Below, piece by piece: positions 6,007-12,106 of a DNA stretch of 32,318 nt (the first letter of the stretch is position 1; every line of letters starts with the position of its first letter). A program made the position numbers and the translations under genes. Below the pieces are notes generated by a model. The model did not search any database, was not told where the DNA came from, and saw only the letters and a program-made list of their open reading frames with translations. This stretch comes from Microcystis aeruginosa LEGE 91341 (GTDB lineage Bacteria; Cyanobacteriota; Cyanobacteriia; Cyanobacteriales; Microcystaceae), in assembly GCF_015206885.1 (NCBI RefSeq), contig NZ_JADEXY010000040.1, positions 1 to 32,318 on the forward strand. Direction: 5' to 3'.

Positions 6007-7713
6007 ATGAAACCGCAAATCATCGTCTGTGGATTAGGTCGCACGGGTTATAAAATCTTTTGTTTACTCAAACAACAATCTGCGGCAGTAGTAGCGATTA
6101 GCGATCGCCAAATGGTCTGTGAATACCAGTCTGATATTATTATCGGCGATCCCTGCTCTCCTAAAACTCTCCTGCAAGCCGGCCTTCCAGATGCAGAAAC
6201 CCTAGTTTTGTCCATCGATAACGACGCACTCAATCTAGAAATTCTCACCCGCGCAAGAATAATTAACCCGAAAATTCGGATAGTTAACCGACTATTTAAC
6301 GAAACTTTGGGAGAAAGACTCGATCAAACCCTCCCTGCTCACGTTAGCATGAGTGTTGCTTCCCTAGCGGCTCCTATCTTTTCCTTTGCTGCCCTTGGTA
6401 ATAAAGCTATCGGTCAATTACAGCTATTCGATCGCCTTTGGCCAATTCAAGAGATAATTATCGAGGAAAATCATCCTTGGTGGGGATTACCCCTCTACGA
6501 ACTTTGGGACGATCCGGCCCGGATGTTAATCTATTATCTCCCCGCTCACGACGAAATCGATCTGGTTTCCGCAGTTCTTTTAGGCAAAAAACTCCAAACT
6601 GGCGATCATCTCATTATCGGCAATAAACCGACAATTAAGGCAAAACAGCGTTTTAAACTGCAAAAGTGGCTGAGAAATCTACTCAATCTCCGTCCCTATC
6701 AGCACTATGTCCAACCGGTAATTCTTGTCACCCTTTCCCTCCTGGGGATGATTTCCCTTGCTACCATTACCTATCTCAGCGTTAATCAAAAAATTTCCCT
6801 CGTCGATTCCCTCTATTTCTCCGTCGGGATGATTACCGGTGCCGGAGGTAACGAAAAAGTGGCCGAATCTACCCCCGATAGTATCAAAATTTTTACCGTG
6901 GTCATGATGATTGTCGGTGCGGGGGTTATCGGTATCTGTTATGCTCTCCTCAACGATTTTATTCTCGGTAGTCGCTTTAAACAGTTTTGGGATGCTACCC
7001 GCATTCCCGTCCGCAATCATCACATTATCTGTGGTTTAGGAGGTATCGGCACCCGCATTGTGCGACAATTGCACGAGCAAGGCTGTGAAGTGGTGGTGAT
7101 TGAATCGGACCCCAATAATAGATTTTTGCATTCCGTGCGCTCTTGGGGAATCCCCGTTATCATCGAGGATGCGCGTCTAGTGGCTACCCTAGAAACGGCT
7201 AATATTAATAACGCTGAATCCTTGATCGTGGTGACTTACGAGGATATGATTAATGTGGAGATTGCCCTCACTGCTAAAGCGATCGCTCCTAAAATTAATC
7301 TAGTTTTACGCTGCTCTCAGGAACAATTCGGGCGATCGATTCAAGAGGTTTTTGATTTTGATACGGTATTATGTCCCCGGGATCTAGCCACCTATTCCTT
7401 CGCTGCGGCCGCTTTGGGCGGTAGAATTCTCGGTAATGGCATGACGGATGATCTCCTCTGGGTTGCTTTGGCTACATTAATCACACCGAATCATCCTTTT
7501 ATGGGGCAAATTATCAAGGAAGCGGCGATGAATGCCGATTTTGTGCCACTTTACCTAGAAAAACAAGGTCAAACTATCCACGGTTGGCAATTACTGGAAA
7601 TCACTCTCGATCAAGGTGATATTCTGTATCTAACTATGCCGGCTATGCGTTTACAACAGGTTTGGCAAAATACTTCCCTAACTATTCCGCAATCTTTCCC
7701 CGATTTAAAATGA
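6007..7713 (+). CDS. Two-TM potassium-channel-like protein with two RCK (TrkA) modules
   Basis: Predicted inner-membrane cation channel or transporter gated by nucleotide or ion binding. Order: RCK/TrkA-N Rossmann domain (1-130, CGLGRTG), TrkA-C-like domain (about 145-205), TM1 (about 236-260), pore region, TM2 (about 290-315), second RCK (about 340-460, CGLGGIGTR followed by VVVIESD), and a final TrkA-C (to about 555). The pore-loop position reads S-L-Y-F-S-V-G-M-I-T-G-A-G-G-N (268-282), where a K+ channel would carry TVGYGD; the canonical filter is missing. The common MthK-type order is 2TM-RCK, so the extra N-terminal RCK module is unusual though known in prokaryotic channels. The stop codon overlaps the next gene's ATG (ATGA), suggesting coupled translation. 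Substrate cannot be assigned from sequence. Confidence 0.85.
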   Translation: MKPQIIVCGLGRTGYKIFCLLKQQSAAVVAISDRQMVCEYQSDIIIGDPCSPKTLLQAGLPDAETLVLSIDNDALNLEILTRARIINPKIRIVNRLFNETLGERLDQTLPAHVSMSVASLAAPIFSFAALGNKAIGQLQLFDRLWPIQEIIIEENHPWWGLPLYELWDDPARMLIYYLPAHDEIDLVSAVLLGKKLQTGDHLIIGNKPTIKAKQRFKLQKWLRNLLNLRPYQHYVQPVILVTLSLLGMISLATITYLSVNQKISLVDSLYFSVGMITGAGGNEKVAESTPDSIKIFTVVMMIVGAGVIGICYALLNDFILGSRFKQFWDATRIPVRNHHIICGLGGIGTRIVRQLHEQGCEVVVIESDPNNRFLHSVRSWGIPVIIEDARLVATLETANINNAESLIVVTYEDMINVEIALTAKAIAPKINLVLRCSQEQFGRSIQEVFDFDTVLCPRDLATYSFAAAALGGRILGNGMTDDLLWVALATLITPNHPFMGQIIKEAAMNADFVPLYLEKQGQTIHGWQLLEITLDQGDILYLTMPAMRLQQVWQNTSLTIPQSFPDLK

Positions 7714-7964
7714 TTTCTGGTCTTAATTATCTGAGCAAAGCTAGTTATCGCTGTATCTTGAGTTTAGGCAGTGCTGGCAGTATTTTAAGTCTCGCTAGTG
7801 CCAGCAGCATTTTAAGTCTGGTTAGTATCGGCAGTATGCTCAGTATTGGCAGTGTCGGCAGTATTCTTAGTATTGGCAGTGTCGGCAGTATTCTTAGTAT
7901 TGGCAGTGTCGGCAGTATCTTTGGCATCTTTCAATATCATTCTCTGCCTAACCATCCTGGATAG
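7710..7964 (+). CDS. Small Ser/Gly/Ile-rich nonapeptide-repeat protein
   Basis: 84 residues when started at the ATG that overlaps the channel gene's stop (ATGA); a longer frame from 7662 would overlap that gene by 52 bp and is less likely. After an N-terminal MISGLNYLSKASYRC the rest is repeats of SIGSVGSIL, nearly exact at the DNA level as three 27-bp units (7842-7868, 7869-7895, 7896-7922), preceded by degenerate units (SLGSAGSIL, SLASASSIL, SLVSIGSML). The period of nine residues with regularly spaced Ile/Leu could form a small beta solenoid or an amphipathic membrane-associated sheet; this is inference. ATGA coupling to the channel gene suggests that both are made together. I do not recognise a characterised family. 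Confidence 0.6.
   Translation: MISGLNYLSKASYRCILSLGSAGSILSLASASSILSLVSIGSMLSIGSVGSILSIGSVGSILSIGSVGSIFGIFQYHSLPNHPG
7842..7922. repeat. 27-bp tandem repeat, three units
   Basis: Three consecutive 27-bp units beginning AGTATTGGCAGTGTCGGCAG; the first two are identical and the third differs only near its end. The unit is a multiple of three and codes for SIGSVGSIL, so copy-number change would keep the frame. Confidence 0.9.
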
Positions 7965-8106: not shown

Positions 8107-10263
8107 TCAGGTGCTTAGGTTTGCTAATTGTTCCTGAATATTAGCTTGAGTAGAGAGTTTTTCGGATTTTTCCCATAGAGCGTTAAAGATACTTTTATCT
8201 GTCTCGACAACTCTTGTTTGATAGGAAATATAACCTGATTCTGTTTGACCATTCATAGTTCTTCTCGCTGTAAAAGAATTTCTTGGAACAGATAAGTTTT
8301 CGCTAATTAATAGGTTGGTATTATCCCAACAATAGCCTTCAACATTTTTGGCTTTTTCATGACAAATACAAGCAACTTCTATGCCAGAGTTAAGTTGTTC
8401 CTGAATCACTTGTAAATGCTTTGGAGTCGGAACTTCAGGAAGAATAAAAACTCGTTGAATAGAAATCCCTCTTTTGATTAGTTCTTTGTTAACTTCCCAG
8501 AATTTTTGACCAAGGGGATTATCCCACCAGATGGAATCTGTCATGGAGTGAACAGCCAAGATTCGAGATTGACTTTGAGGATCAATGTGTTTGAGTAGTT
8601 GAGCAACCTTTTCTAAACGGGATTCGCCGCTAATTTCAATGTTAATTTCAGGCATAATTGTGTTAGTCAAAATTGTGCCATCAAGGAGGGTTAGATTATT
8701 TTCATCTAATTTAACATCGGTCAAGTTAGCTCCCGTTAGATTAGCTTTGCTCAAATCGGCATGACTTAAATTGGCTCCTGTTAAATCAGCATTAGTTAAA
8801 TTAACCCTCGAAAGATTAGCCTGACTGAAGTTACATCCCATCAATTTTGCATCGGAAAGATTGGCCTCACCATCCATTAAATTAACTTGGCTGAAATTCA
8901 GTCCCCGAAAATCTCGTTCGCCAATTTTGTGCAAATATGTCAATTCTTTCGTGCTATGAATATCAGGGTGATATTCCTTGGGTGCATAAACGGCAATCAT
9001 CGCTTTGACGTAGGCGAAAAAATAAGCCTTGAGAATATTTTCATGGGTGTGGATGGTAATAACTTCTTTCCCATCATACTCGACCACCGCCTTGACAGTT
9101 GTGGCTCCTTGTTGACCCGGTGTCAAGTTGGCCAAATAGATAGATGTAAGGGTATGTTTAACCTCAACTAAATGAGCTAGAGCCTCATTAAAAGCAGTAC
9201 AAAGTGCATCTACTGAACCTTTTTTAAAGGCTGATTCAGTGTAACGCTCTTGGGTTTTTGTATTACATAGGATAACTGTCGCAGAAGTTAAATTGTTATT
9301 GGCACAGAGAATTTCAAAGTTCTCAATTTTCCAGCCTTGAAAAAGCAAAAGATTATCTTCAAAGAATAAGTTTTGTTGAGGCTCGTTTTCTAAAAGCTGA
9401 TTGAGTTTTACTTTCTCATGTTCCATGGCAGCTTTACCGATATTTTTGAGAGTTCTTTCGATAGAAGCTGGCGAGGTATCTTTCCCTAAAGACTGTAAGA
9501 ATAGGGAAGGAGAACCCACAAAAGGATACCCACTGGCAATGAATTCTCGATCTCTGATGGTGATAATACCTGCTAGGCTATACTTTCTGGCAATCTCAAC
9601 TTGAATTGCCGTTTTTAAATTAACGTTGGGATATTTTTCTAGGTCAATTTCTTTCAAGTTAACTTGACCGACGTTAATCTTACTCAGAAGTTCAATGATC
9701 GAACGATTGGCATCTTTTCTAGATTTCAGATTTTTGATATCATGCCAAATTTTGATTAATCCCATTTCGCCGATGTAAGGATTAATTTTTCCCTCTAAAA
9801 CAAGTCCCATAACCCTAGTCGCTTCACTGTTAAGAGTCGTCTGATTTCGTAATAAAAACTCTTCAATCAGAGCAGCGTCAATTAAGACTTTTGGAGCTTG
9901 AGAATTGTTATCTTTTAATTGGAATACTTCTAAGTTACCCAGAAAAAAATTAATATTTATACTAGGATGATTAGTAACTTTACGCAAACTAAACTTGATT
10001 TCGTACTGCACAAAATCACCAGATTCGTTTTCGAGATTATTTCTCAAATCCCAAAGTTTTTTAATCACTTGAGGCTCAGGATATTCTCCTAATTTCCTTA
10101 TGATTTCAGCACGGCGATCGCTATCCTGTTCATTGTCTAGTTGAGCTAACAAATCATTAATAATGTCAGCACGGGGAGTGACCGATGTTGGTATCTCGCA
10201 CAATAACTCTGTGTTTTCCATTTTTAAATCAATCTCCTTGATTGGTGGTCTTCTCATCCGCAC
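8107..10263 (-). CDS. Multidomain protein: HEAT-like, LeuA-regulatory-like, pentapeptide repeats, C-terminal alpha/beta domain
   Basis: Not a recognised family as a whole. N-terminus (about 30-95) has a HEAT-like helical pair (RRAEIIRKLGEYPEPQVIKKLWDL). Residues about 315-425 resemble the regulatory (dimerisation) domain of 2-isopropylmalate synthase: SATVILCN, KKGSVDALCTAFNEAL, then VKAVVEYDGKEV and a helix ENILKAYFFAYVKAM. No LeuA catalytic barrel is present. Residues about 448-530 are pentapeptide repeats (ANLSxADL, ANLTGANL). The last about 180 residues look alpha/beta (RILAVHSMT..WW, GISIQRVFIL, Q..LNSGIEVACI) and end in a helix; the layout recalls PLD-like or sensor domains but no HKD motif is visible. 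GTG start at 10263 overlaps the upstream stop by one base. In-frame ATGs at 10257 and 10221 are alternatives, and the latter has AAGGAG 12 nt upstream. Second gene of an operator-preceded operon. Confidence 0.8.
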   Translation of the reverse strand: MRMRRPPIKEIDLKMENTELLCEIPTSVTPRADIINDLLAQLDNEQDSDRRAEIIRKLGEYPEPQVIKKLWDLRNNLENESGDFVQYEIKFSLRKVTNHPSININFFLGNLEVFQLKDNNSQAPKVLIDAALIEEFLLRNQTTLNSEATRVMGLVLEGKINPYIGEMGLIKIWHDIKNLKSRKDANRSIIELLSKINVGQVNLKEIDLEKYPNVNLKTAIQVEIARKYSLAGIITIRDREFIASGYPFVGSPSLFLQSLGKDTSPASIERTLKNIGKAAMEHEKVKLNQLLENEPQQNLFFEDNLLLFQGWKIENFEILCANNNLTSATVILCNTKTQERYTESAFKKGSVDALCTAFNEALAHLVEVKHTLTSIYLANLTPGQQGATTVKAVVEYDGKEVITIHTHENILKAYFFAYVKAMIAVYAPKEYHPDIHSTKELTYLHKIGERDFRGLNFSQVNLMDGEANLSDAKLMGCNFSQANLSRVNLTNADLTGANLSHADLSKANLTGANLTDVKLDENNLTLLDGTILTNTIMPEINIEISGESRLEKVAQLLKHIDPQSQSRILAVHSMTDSIWWDNPLGQKFWEVNKELIKRGISIQRVFILPEVPTPKHLQVIQEQLNSGIEVACICHEKAKNVEGYCWDNTNLLISENLSVPRNSFTARRTMNGQTESGYISYQTRVVETDKSIFNALWEKSEKLSTQANIQEQLANLST

Positions 10264-10679
10264 TAATTGTGTCTGACAGTAAAAGACTGCTCTAATTGAG
10301 AATTTTCAGCGTAGCGTGTTCGCAAAACTCTCACTAATTCATCGTCATTAATGTCAACAAAATAGCCCTTTTTAAAGAGAACTCTTCTTAAAGAAGTAAT
10401 TCCCACCCGCTCATCTAACTCAAGGTAATCCTTAAGATGGGATCCTAGGTTTTTGTTGAAATCCGCGTTTAGATTTTTTTGGCTATGATTGAACATTTCA
10501 GCCAAGTCATCGGCGGAATAAAGTCCTGTAGCCGCCAGATAGAAAATAATTTTGTATTTTTCAGATGGGGGTTCGATTTTTTCCAATAAAGCTTGTAGCT
10601 TGGGTATATCCAAACCACAGTTTCTTGCCTGCTTTTGGGCATCGCATAGTGATGGGGGAGTTGACGAGAGCGTCTTCAT
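10263..10679 (-). CDS. 138-aa protein with HTH-like core
   Basis: Unrecognised. The middle (about 42-85: YKIIFYLAATGLYSADDLAEM, then HSQKNLNADFNKNLGSHLKDYL) has the spacing of a helix-turn-helix, with a short turn after AATGLYS. It is followed by a probable wing or second helical unit (ITSLRRVLFKKGYFVDI). No membrane segment or signal. The stop TAG shares its G with the GTG start of the 718-aa gene, so the two are almost certainly co-translated. An array of five near-palindromic sites lies 44 to 145 bp upstream of its ATG, which fits a role as self-regulating DNA-binding protein; equally it could be an adaptor or effector-associated helical domain of a conflict system. DNA binding is inference only. 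Confidence 0.65.
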   Translation of the reverse strand: MKTLSSTPPSLCDAQKQARNCGLDIPKLQALLEKIEPPSEKYKIIFYLAATGLYSADDLAEMFNHSQKNLNADFNKNLGSHLKDYLELDERVGITSLRRVLFKKGYFVDINDDELVRVLRTRYAENSQLEQSFTVRHN

Positions 10680-10722: not shown

Positions 10723-10825
10723 CAACAATTATTGTTTAATGATAGCAACAATTATTGGTTTAGCTTTGCAACAATTGTTGGTTTGAAGCCAATAATTGTT
10801 GGTTTAACTTTGCAATATTTATTGG
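10723..10825. promoter_or_regulatory. Array of five near-palindromic 12-bp sites
   Basis: Sites start at 10723, 10746, 10769, 10790 and 10813: CAACAATTATTG, CAACAATTATTG, CAACAATTGTTG (perfect palindrome), CAATAATTGTTG and CAATATTTATTG. Steps are 23, 23, 21 and 23 bp, about two helical turns, so the sites face nearly the same side of the DNA. Most are followed by GGTTT, making a degenerate 23-bp direct repeat with a palindromic core. Position directly upstream of the 138-aa/718-aa operon suggests operators; an iteron-like replication or maintenance role is an alternative. Confidence 0.7.
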
Positions 10826-11368: not shown

Positions 11369-11605
11369 ATGAAAGCACTTAGCCACAAAACAGAAGATTT
11401 GAGTATAGCCGATGTCTCATCCTATTACCCCGATCAATGGGTGGTCGTAGAGATCACTGGTCGCGACAAATATGGCTGGCCAGAGAAAGGTAAGGTTATT
11501 GGGTATTCAGACGATAAACATAAGCTTATACAAGAAACTAAACATTTGAAGGGAGACTTATATTTGTTTTATACAGGTCCTGTTGACGGAAGTAAAGTTG
11601 CTTAA
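11369..11605 (+). CDS. 78-aa hypothetical protein upstream of an aspartyl-protease gene
   Basis: Function unknown. The sequence (SSYYPDQWVVVEITGRDKYGWPEKGKVIGYSDDK, then LKGDLYLFYTGPV) is a compact beta-rich domain without membrane segments or Cys clusters. It resembles a group of small cyanobacterial proteins whose genes commonly sit just before retropepsin-like proteases (from memory, not checked), as here, where the protease frame follows within 67 bp. No good ribosome binding site is seen before this ATG. It may be a substrate, partner or inhibitor of the protease. Confidence 0.65.
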   Translation: MKALSHKTEDLSIADVSSYYPDQWVVVEITGRDKYGWPEKGKVIGYSDDKHKLIQETKHLKGDLYLFYTGPVDGSKVA

Positions 11606-11671
11606 AGTTGATAATGAGTCTTGGCTATCAACGCTACAGCTTTTATCCTTACTCCATCATCCTTAATCTAC

Positions 11672-12106
11672 ATGGCCGTCATTGTCGTTGAACATACATT
11701 TGAGGGAGACCACAATCTTGAGAGATTGTCTATGTGGGTGATTCCAGTCACTGTTGAGTTTAACGACAACCAAAGAACGGTTAATGTCCTACTCGATACG
11801 GGGTCACAGGTGACTGTCTTTCATCCAGATTTATTAGACTTTCTAGATTTACCGACATCTCAATCATCTGTTCGGGGAAGTGGTGCAACGGGTAGTTCTC
11901 GGTATAGGACTGCTAGGCTTGATAGACTGGAAATAGGTTCTATTTTGTTTAGTGAAACAGAAGTTTTTTTTGGCTCTATTCCAGGAGTATCCTCAAAATA
12001 CTATATTGATGGGATGTTAGGAGGGGACATTCTCAAAGAATTAAAGGTAATCATTGATTATCCTCAAAAAACTCTTAAACTAGAAAAGCTATTTATTTCG
12101 CTTTAA
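11672..12106 (+). CDS. Retropepsin-like aspartyl protease
   Basis: Single-lobed aspartyl protease fold of about 145 residues, which would work as a dimer. Catalytic motif LLDTGSQVTVF (Asp at about residue 42), then a flap region (GSGATGSSRYRTARLDRLEIGS) and the second signature DGMLGGDIL with the hydrophobic-hydrophobic-Gly pattern, followed by VIIDYPQKTLKLE. No signal peptide, so probably cytosolic. The frame is open back to a TTG at 11621; the ATG at 11672 is chosen because the extra 17 residues look unlike the family, but ATG 11732 (MWVIPVTVEF) is possible. The 78-aa gene lies before it and a Trypco/Pepco-like gene 42 bp after. Substrate unknown. Confidence 0.8.
   Translation: MAVIVVEHTFEGDHNLERLSMWVIPVTVEFNDNQRTVNVLLDTGSQVTVFHPDLLDFLDLPTSQSSVRGSGATGSSRYRTARLDRLEIGSILFSETEVFFGSIPGVSSKYYIDGMLGGDILKELKVIIDYPQKTLKLEKLFISL

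What the first reader, a model, noticed from the sequence alone, without database searches (positions are those of the whole stretch)
8107..10679. Candidate new two-gene system: HTH-like protein plus multidomain partner
A 138-aa HTH-like gene and a 718-aa gene overlap by one base (TAG/GTG), are preceded by a regular operator array, and lie in an accessory block next to a small membrane peptide, a retropepsin-like protease and a Trypco/Pepco-like protein. The compact, tightly coupled layout of unrecognised proteins resembles conflict (defence) or conditional regulatory systems. Seen: overlap, array, domain patterns. Inferred: a shared function.
Basis: partly seen in the sequence, partly recalled or inferred. 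Interest (0 to 1): 0.75.

Follow-up and report, generated by a model that had tools for sequence, protein, structure and literature searches.

The report
HTH gene with pseudo-PIN sensor partner
Two linked genes in a Microcystis-like cyanobacterium look like a small DNA-binding switch and a large multi-part sensor protein built around a toxin fold that has lost most of its usual cutting residues, resembling several other gene pairs found in cyanobacteria.

Summary
The pair is real: a 138-aa helix-turn-helix (HTH) protein and a 718-aa partner, headed by palindromes (CAAYAATTRTTG, 21-23 bp apart) whose paired arrangement is unique in the assembly. One detail is doubtful: the 1-base overlap needs a GTG start; a conserved ATG suggests a 41-nt gap.

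The partner reads HEAT-like / PIN / LeuA-regulatory / pentapeptide / PLD-like. Both enzyme folds look inactive: no HKD motif, and the PIN keeps one of five standard acid columns. In a sample of 52 cyanobacterial PINs, 24 of 38 stand-alone ones keep all five columns and 0 of 14 fused ones do; 9 of those 14 (about five lineages) have an HTH gene just upstream. Fusion partners vary (DUF1822, Npun_R1517, phycobilisome, LeuA/pentapeptide/PLD).

The small gene is in 6 of 12 genomes of the genus, the large one in 7 of 12, in a hotspot between nadD-like and K+-channel-like genes. Two Crocosphaera MAGs carry the pair. Intact copies show purifying selection overall; some copies are broken.

Best reading: an accessory switch built from toxin-antitoxin parts, in which the HTH protein autoregulates and the large protein senses and controls it. 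DNA binding, contact and output are inferred; defence is possible but unproven. The neighbouring protease and Trypco-like genes are optional.

The parts
10723..10824 (.). Operator-like array: 5 palindromic CAAYAATTRTTG-type sites (10723, 10746, 10769, 10790 exact; 10813 one mismatch), 21-23 bp apart, 43 nt before the small gene
   Evidence: 0 of 100 shuffles; paired form found only here in the assembly; at least two exact sites before the small gene in each of the five other loci of the genus examined, not in Crocosphaera or L005
10263..10679 (-). 138-aa HTH protein: helical HTH core about 11-108, low-confidence C-terminal tail about 114-138
8107..10263 (-). 718-aa partner as listed (GTG start); conserved Met15 at 10221 is the likelier start
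9958..10173 (-). HEAT-like helical region, residues 31-102
9469..9912 (-). Degenerate PIN domain, residues 118-265
   Evidence: Weak PIN_3 on its own (0.028); family profiles find stand-alone PINs across cyanobacteria; acid columns counted
8974..9369 (-). LeuA-type regulatory (dimerisation) domain, residues 299-430
   Evidence: Pfam LeuA_dimer 3.3e-9, above cut-off; also above cut-off in the Crocosphaera and L005 relatives
8644..8946 (-). Pentapeptide-repeat solenoid, residues about 440-540
8110..8631 (-). PLD-like fold domain without HKD motif, residues 545-718

Best explanation
A conditional regulatory switch assembled from toxin-antitoxin parts. The 138-aa HTH protein binds the palindrome array in front of its own gene and controls the operon (inferred). 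Its C-terminal tail, like an antitoxin tail, binds the 718-aa partner, perhaps at the HEAT-like N-terminus (inferred). The partner is probably not a nuclease: its PIN and PLD-like domains are kept as folds but lack most standard active-site residues. With the LeuA-type domain (possible small-ligand and dimer module) and the pentapeptide solenoid, it senses a stress or infection cue and releases or locks the HTH protein. Shown: anatomy, array, pair linkage, loss of standard active-site residues, purifying selection overall, and recurrence of HTH genes beside fused pseudo-PINs in other lineages. Inferred: DNA binding, protein contact, ligand, output.
For: Pair adjacent in 6 of 6 genomes of the genus holding the small gene and in 2 Crocosphaera MAGs. 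Paired array found only here in the assembly and repeated before the small gene in the five other loci of the genus examined. HTH-like core plus low-confidence tail. Of 52 distinct sampled PINs, 24 of 38 stand-alone ones keep all five acid columns and 0 of 14 fused ones do (0 to 3 of five kept; the window keeps one). Upstream HTH gene within 120 nt of 9 of 14 fused PINs (four in the window's own family; XRE-type in L091, L092, L093, L128, L129). dN/dS 0.23-0.44 for the whole protein and 0.09-0.30 for the PIN part in five valid pairs. In G389 one divergent block runs from about residue 90 of the small protein to about residue 115 of the large one, 66-78% identical in eight 60-nt bins, so the HTH tail and HEAT region appear to have been exchanged together (one case).
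Against: No experiment. The array is absent in Crocosphaera and L005, so it is not a fixed part. L005/L031 has no recognisable HTH partner. 5 of 14 fused PINs have no HTH gene within 120 nt, and the 9 that do are about five lineages. HTH fold matches are weak. The model of the large protein is poor (mean pLDDT 48.6). A one-residue shift would let D238 serve as acid 4, and E166/E223 could form an unusual metal site. dN/dS is high in parts of some pairs (pentapeptide 1.36 and HEAT 0.72 for window-G233; small gene 0.22-0.60). Copies are broken in G235 and G386 and truncated in G355, so it is dispensable.
Confidence: 0.45

Rival explanations
1. A genuine toxin-antitoxin pair: the HTH protein is the antitoxin and the 718-aa protein an active PIN ribonuclease with an unusual acid set, restrained until stress or phage attack.
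For: Gene order (small HTH-like gene first), close coupling, palindromic sites and a low-confidence tail are type II TA anatomy. D129 is invariant in the window family copies aligned, and E166, E223, D238 (or E) and E240 (or D) are acidic in the genus copies aligned and L005. The PIN part is under purifying selection in all five valid pairs (0.09-0.30). The only genome of the genus with the large gene but no small gene (G355) lacks residues 1-206.
Against: Acid 3b is absent in all 14 fused PINs; acid 3 is N/T or S/S in the window family; acid 2 is K, N or Q in genus copies and H in Crocosphaera; E166 is V in both Crocosphaera and D238 is Y in L036. The small-protein profile shows no convincing relation to the antitoxin-like genes upstream of stand-alone PINs.
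Confidence: 0.2
2. A phage-defence (conflict) module related to the cyanobacterial EACC2-caspase systems: the HTH and pseudo-PIN genes are the sensing and transcription arm, and a separate effector elsewhere kills the cell.
For: L093 and L130 carry XRE, PIN-DUF1822 (weak DUF1822 in L130) and CHAT genes in a row. Kaur et al. 2021 (PMC8195603, section 9 read) describe ECF sigma and DUF1822 genes beside EACC2-caspase genes. Scattered presence in a hotspot with RES, BrnT and Uma2 genes. The genome holds 10 CHAT matches elsewhere.
Against: None of the 10 CHAT matches lies on the window's contig, and none was seen by eye among the ORFs around the Crocosphaera pairs. No PADLOC match for the large protein.
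Confidence: 0.25
3. Decaying accessory genes kept briefly by horizontal transfer, with no maintained function.
For: Among 7 genomes of the genus with the large gene, one has an in-frame stop (G235), one a frame break (G386), one is truncated and displaced (G355).
Against: Intact copies show overall dN/dS 0.23-0.44, and the pair is kept together at 47-53% identity in Crocosphaera.
Confidence: 0.1

Closest known systems
VapBC-type (PIN) toxin-antitoxin modules
   Same: PIN fold in the second gene, small HTH-like gene first, close coupling, palindromic sites, disordered-looking tail
   Different: PIN acid set degenerate; large protein has four further regions; no convincing relation of the HTH protein to the small genes upstream of the stand-alone PINs (best 0.0015 over about 25 residues among 21 sequences, as low in 1 of 200 shuffled sets)
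Cyanobacterial EACC2-caspase systems with ECF sigma and DUF1822 genes (Kaur et al. 2021, PMC8195603)
   Same: HTH or sigma-like gene beside a repeat/sensor protein; related PIN-DUF1822 proteins lie beside XRE and CHAT genes in L093 and L130
   Different: No CHAT match on the window's contig; no DUF1822 in the window protein; XRE or unclassified HTH instead of ECF
LeuA (2-isopropylmalate synthase) C-terminal regulatory domain
   Same: LeuA_dimer domain above Pfam cut-off
   Different: No LeuA catalytic part found; sits between PIN and pentapeptide repeats
PLD-family nucleases (Nuc, BfiI, Zucchini)
   Same: Fold of residues about 536-705 in a low-confidence model
   Different: No HKD motif

Membership tests
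PIN-domain ribonuclease toxins (VapC-like) | PIN fold by profile | tested here: met
   PIN part of the family profile finds stand-alone PINs down to 1.3e-16 and lower with a broader profile; Pfam PIN_3 3.2e-5 (just under cut-off) in L005
PIN-domain ribonuclease toxins (VapC-like) | Acidic catalytic set in the standard positions | tested here: not met
   Window keeps D129 only; K171, N215, T218, R237 elsewhere. All five columns kept in 24 of 38 stand-alone and 0 of 14 fused PINs sampled. A one-residue slip could make D238 acid 4
Type II toxin-antitoxin module | Small gene directly upstream, coupled, with palindromic sites | tested here: met
   (palindromes in this genus only; DNA binding itself untested)
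Type II toxin-antitoxin module | Toxicity of the second gene, neutralised by the first | not testable with these tools
   Needs expression in a laboratory host
PLD superfamily nucleases | HKD motif (HxKxxxxD) | tested here: not met
   In five intact proteins, an HxK occurs in the last 180 residues of four, at differing places and never with D at the motif distance; none in G233
LeuA | Catalytic barrel domain | tested here: not met
   Pfam finds only the regulatory domain
EACC2-caspase conflict systems | CHAT/caspase gene in the neighbourhood | tested here: not met
   10 CHAT matches in the assembly, none on the window's contig; Crocosphaera judged by eye only; CHAT present near PIN fusions L093 and L130
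Known anti-phage systems (PADLOC) | Match of either protein to a model | tested here: inconclusive
   None for the large protein; WH_III-A 0.0039 for the small one

The most novel reading that the evidence does not exclude
A cyanobacterial class of two-gene switches in which a PIN toxin was disarmed and reused as a docking hub: an HTH gene followed by a pseudo-PIN fused to exchangeable sensor modules (LeuA-type, DUF1822, Npun_R1517, phycobilisome-like, pentapeptide, pseudo-PLD), with the HTH tail and the partner's N-terminus exchanged together as a specificity unit.
Probability: 0.35. Interest if true: 0.8.

Novelty: new variant of a known kind. Interest (0 to 1): 0.6.

Why it matters
If right, it documents disarmed toxin folds being turned repeatedly into regulatory hubs, links toxin-antitoxin modules with the caspase-associated conflict systems of cyanobacteria, and gives concrete testable parts: an operator, an HTH protein, a putative ligand domain, and a swapped contact surface.

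Tried and rejected
Active PIN toxin: considered first; demoted after the acid-column comparison. Active PLD nuclease: rejected, no HKD. Phage origin: no match for the C-terminal domain or residues 1-435 in phages, nor for the PIN-LeuA profile in viral contigs; the small protein was searched only in plasmids (none) and genomes. Obligate link to the retropepsin/Trypco-like genes: rejected. A guess from memory that the small protein belongs to a vMAP-type HTH family could not be tested (accession not held). Relation of the 120-aa gene upstream of the L031 protein to the small protein: no support. Relation of the small protein to antitoxin-like genes upstream of stand-alone PINs: weak 25-residue match, treated as chance. 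Relation of the C-terminal domain to an actinobacterial DUF6879-like protein: one weak tblastn hit, left open. A Crocosphaera genus survey was not possible. The first dN/dS run used a wrong frame for G233; those rows were discarded and redone. Sampling limits: the 52 PINs come from 51 of 56 loci given to the script, which were mostly the best matches of a profile built largely from degenerate PINs, so class sizes are not frequencies. The 24-protein class with all acids was first set apart by one acid column (3b), so its '24 of 24' is partly by construction; the fair figure is 24 of 38 stand-alone against 0 of 14 fused. The fused class includes the broken G235 copy (L106) and near relatives. 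The upstream-gene control is rough: for 73 non-PIN ORFs of 200 aa or more only 5 upstream ORFs of 80 aa or more were kept, against 11 of 14 fused PINs (limit 50 aa); the 73 include spurious ORFs and locus edges, and duplicates were dropped. Papers: PMC8195603 passages and section 9 read; PMC7159879 passages; all others seen as listings only.

Full report
What is there. The window is contig C258 of a 280-contig assembly; the closest named relatives of the large protein are Microcystis records at 92-95% identity, so I call the genus Microcystis by inference. On the minus strand lie a 138-aa ORF (10679-10263) and a 718-aa ORF (10263-8107). The DNA reads TAGTG at the junction, so a one-base overlap exists if the GTG is used. 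Met15 (10221) has AAGGAG upstream, aligns with the first residue of both Crocosphaera proteins, and in G389 the open frame only begins there. It is the likelier start, giving a 41-nt gap. In front of the small gene are five CAAYAATTRTTG-type palindromes spaced 21-23 bp (0 of 100 shuffles reach five). The paired arrangement was found only here in the assembly, and 4 of 10 exact single sites lie here. Each of the five other loci of the genus examined has at least two exact sites before the small gene, in the same register, and G386 has a second set further upstream; the two Crocosphaera loci and L005 have none.

The PIN domain is degenerate. I compared five acid columns (1, 2, 3a, 3b, 4) in 52 distinct PINs from 56 loci. 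Of 38 stand-alone proteins, 24 keep all five; the other 14 keep one to three (D1 in 14, acid 2 in 0, 3a in 12, 3b in 0, acid 4 in 1). Of 14 fused proteins (200 aa or more), none keeps all five (none to three kept: D1 in 12, acid 2 in 2, 3a in 6, 3b in 0, acid 4 in 4). The split of the stand-alone group was first made on column 3b, and the sample leans to degenerate PINs, so these are not population frequencies. Of the 24 intact ones, 17 have an upstream ORF within -40 to +15 nt, many of which look like small antitoxin genes by eye; of the 14 degenerate stand-alone ones, 3 do. In the window the five residues are D129, K171, N215, T218, R237. A one-residue shift could place D238 as acid 4, and E166 or E223 might compensate, so loss of activity is likely rather than proven. 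The tree needs one change for each stand-alone group and two for the fused one; the window protein groups with Crocosphaera and L005 (99/97), but several fused branches are long and their deeper placement is unsure.

A wider set. HTH genes lie within 120 nt upstream of 9 of 14 fused PINs: four in the window's own family (one of them the broken G235 copy), and XRE-type genes in L091 (HTH_26 6.4e-21), L093, L128, L129 (HTH_3 8.5e-10, 3.8e-11, 1.9e-11) and L092 (HTH_3 0.0045, below cut-off, with DUF2442). That is about five lineages. L130 has an XRE gene further upstream; L094 and L095 have an upstream gene with no HTH match (L094 scanned); L005 and one L128 protein have none. Fusion partners include DUF1822 (L093 5.7e-13; weak 9e-4 in L130), phycobilisome (L094 2.5e-14, L095 1.1e-6), Npun_R1517 (L129 9.8e-43) and weak sigma region 4 (L128). 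L093 and L130 also carry CHAT genes, in L093 with pentapeptide repeats, which ties the set to the EACC2-caspase neighbourhoods with ECF and DUF1822 genes described by Kaur et al. 2021 (PMC8195603, section 9). The window's assembly has 10 CHAT matches, none on the window's contig. Literature searches returned no listing that I recognised as this HTH plus pseudo-PIN set; apart from the two papers named in Tried and rejected, they were seen as listings only, and many papers are not in the library.

Distribution and locus. In 12 genomes of the genus the large gene is in 7 and the small gene in 6, each time beside the large one. The pair lies between a nadD-like gene (CTP_transf_like 1.7e-14) and a K+-channel-like gene (TrkA_N 3.3e-40, Ion_trans_2 just under cut-off) in the four genomes whose contig spans the site (window, G389, G386, G233); G235 and G388 have it beside the nadD-like gene on contigs that end before the channel gene. 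G251, G310 and G387 have short empty sites, G095 only a Uma2 gene, and G390 and G355 cannot be judged there. Beside the pair are the retropepsin and Trypco-like genes (window, G389, G235), a RES gene with a putative antitoxin (G386, G388), or a BrnT gene (G233). Large-gene copies are broken in G235 and G386, split over contigs in G388, and truncated in G355, beside RRF and amino-acid-kinase genes. The two Crocosphaera MAGs carry the pair next to a glycerol-3-phosphate dehydrogenase gene, and L036 (by eye L035 too) next to an animal-type haem peroxidase gene. In 386 cyanobacterial genomes the small-protein profile hits 3 and the C-terminal profile 4, all in this genus. No relatives of the parts tried were found in phages or viral contigs.

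Selection and modularity. In five valid pairs dN/dS is 0.23-0.44 for the whole protein and 0.09-0.30 for the PIN part; it is 1.36 for the pentapeptide part and 0.72 for the HEAT part in window-G233 (few changes), and 0.22-0.60 for the small gene; dS between Microcystis and Crocosphaera is near saturation. In G389 one block, from about residue 90 of the small protein to about residue 115 of the large one, is 66-78% identical in eight 60-nt bins (85% in the next); most bins on either side are 92-98%, with dips of 80% (small gene residue 30-50) and 85-88% (large gene 272-311). The ends fall near the end of the HTH core and the start of the PIN domain. This hints that the HTH tail and the HEAT-like region recognise each other, but it is one exchange, and any contiguous exchange would carry neighbours along.

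Mechanism and verdict. I favour an autoregulated switch made of a disarmed toxin scaffold with sensor modules, kept as an accessory element. DNA binding, contact, ligand and output are inferred. A true toxin-antitoxin pair and a defence sensor arm remain open. The finding is more than an ordinary neighbourhood, but it is a variant of known kinds rather than a new kind.

Noticed in passing
window 7662-7964 (84-aa ORF from 7710): Gly-Ser-Ile/Val/Leu-rich ORF of 9/27-bp repeats that starts over the stop codon of the K+-channel-like gene (ATGA); found at about 96-100% nucleotide identity in 10 of 14 fetched loci of the genus, with or without the pair; no Pfam match.
   Followed up: partly
window 11369-11605 and 11621-12106: 78-aa and retropepsin-like ORFs match the two PADLOC candidates PDC-M08A (0.0016) and PDC-M08B (1.2e-14); the 78-aa gene also occurs without the protease in G233 and G388.
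   Followed up: partly
L059 and L060 between nadD-like gene and the pair: A RES-domain gene (Pfam 2.9e-12 and 1.4e-11) and a putative Xre/MbcA-type antitoxin (0.04 at best) occupy the place of the retropepsin/Trypco-like genes; G233 has the antitoxin-like gene, with no RES ORF seen beside it.
   Followed up: partly
L035:958-1185, L036:3019-3246, L059:2720-3040: DUF1830 genes lie near the pair in both Crocosphaera MAGs and in one genome of the window's genus.
   Followed up: no
L094:2100-3083 and L095: PIN_3 fused to a phycobilisome-type domain (Pfam 6.9e-16 and 2.5e-14 in L094; 1.2e-17 and 1.1e-6 in L095).
   Followed up: partly
L093:2779-6428 and L130: XRE, PIN-DUF1822 and CHAT genes in a row: a possible variant of EACC2-caspase systems with a pseudo-PIN.
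   Followed up: partly
14 degenerate stand-alone PINs, such as L096, L097, L105: Stand-alone degenerate PINs, mostly without an upstream partner gene (3 of 14 within -40 to +15 nt), forming one group in the tree.
   Followed up: partly
L070 (G355 contig C27): Truncated large gene without the small gene, near ribosome-recycling-factor and amino-acid-kinase (pyrH-like) genes, away from the nadD-like gene.
   Followed up: partly
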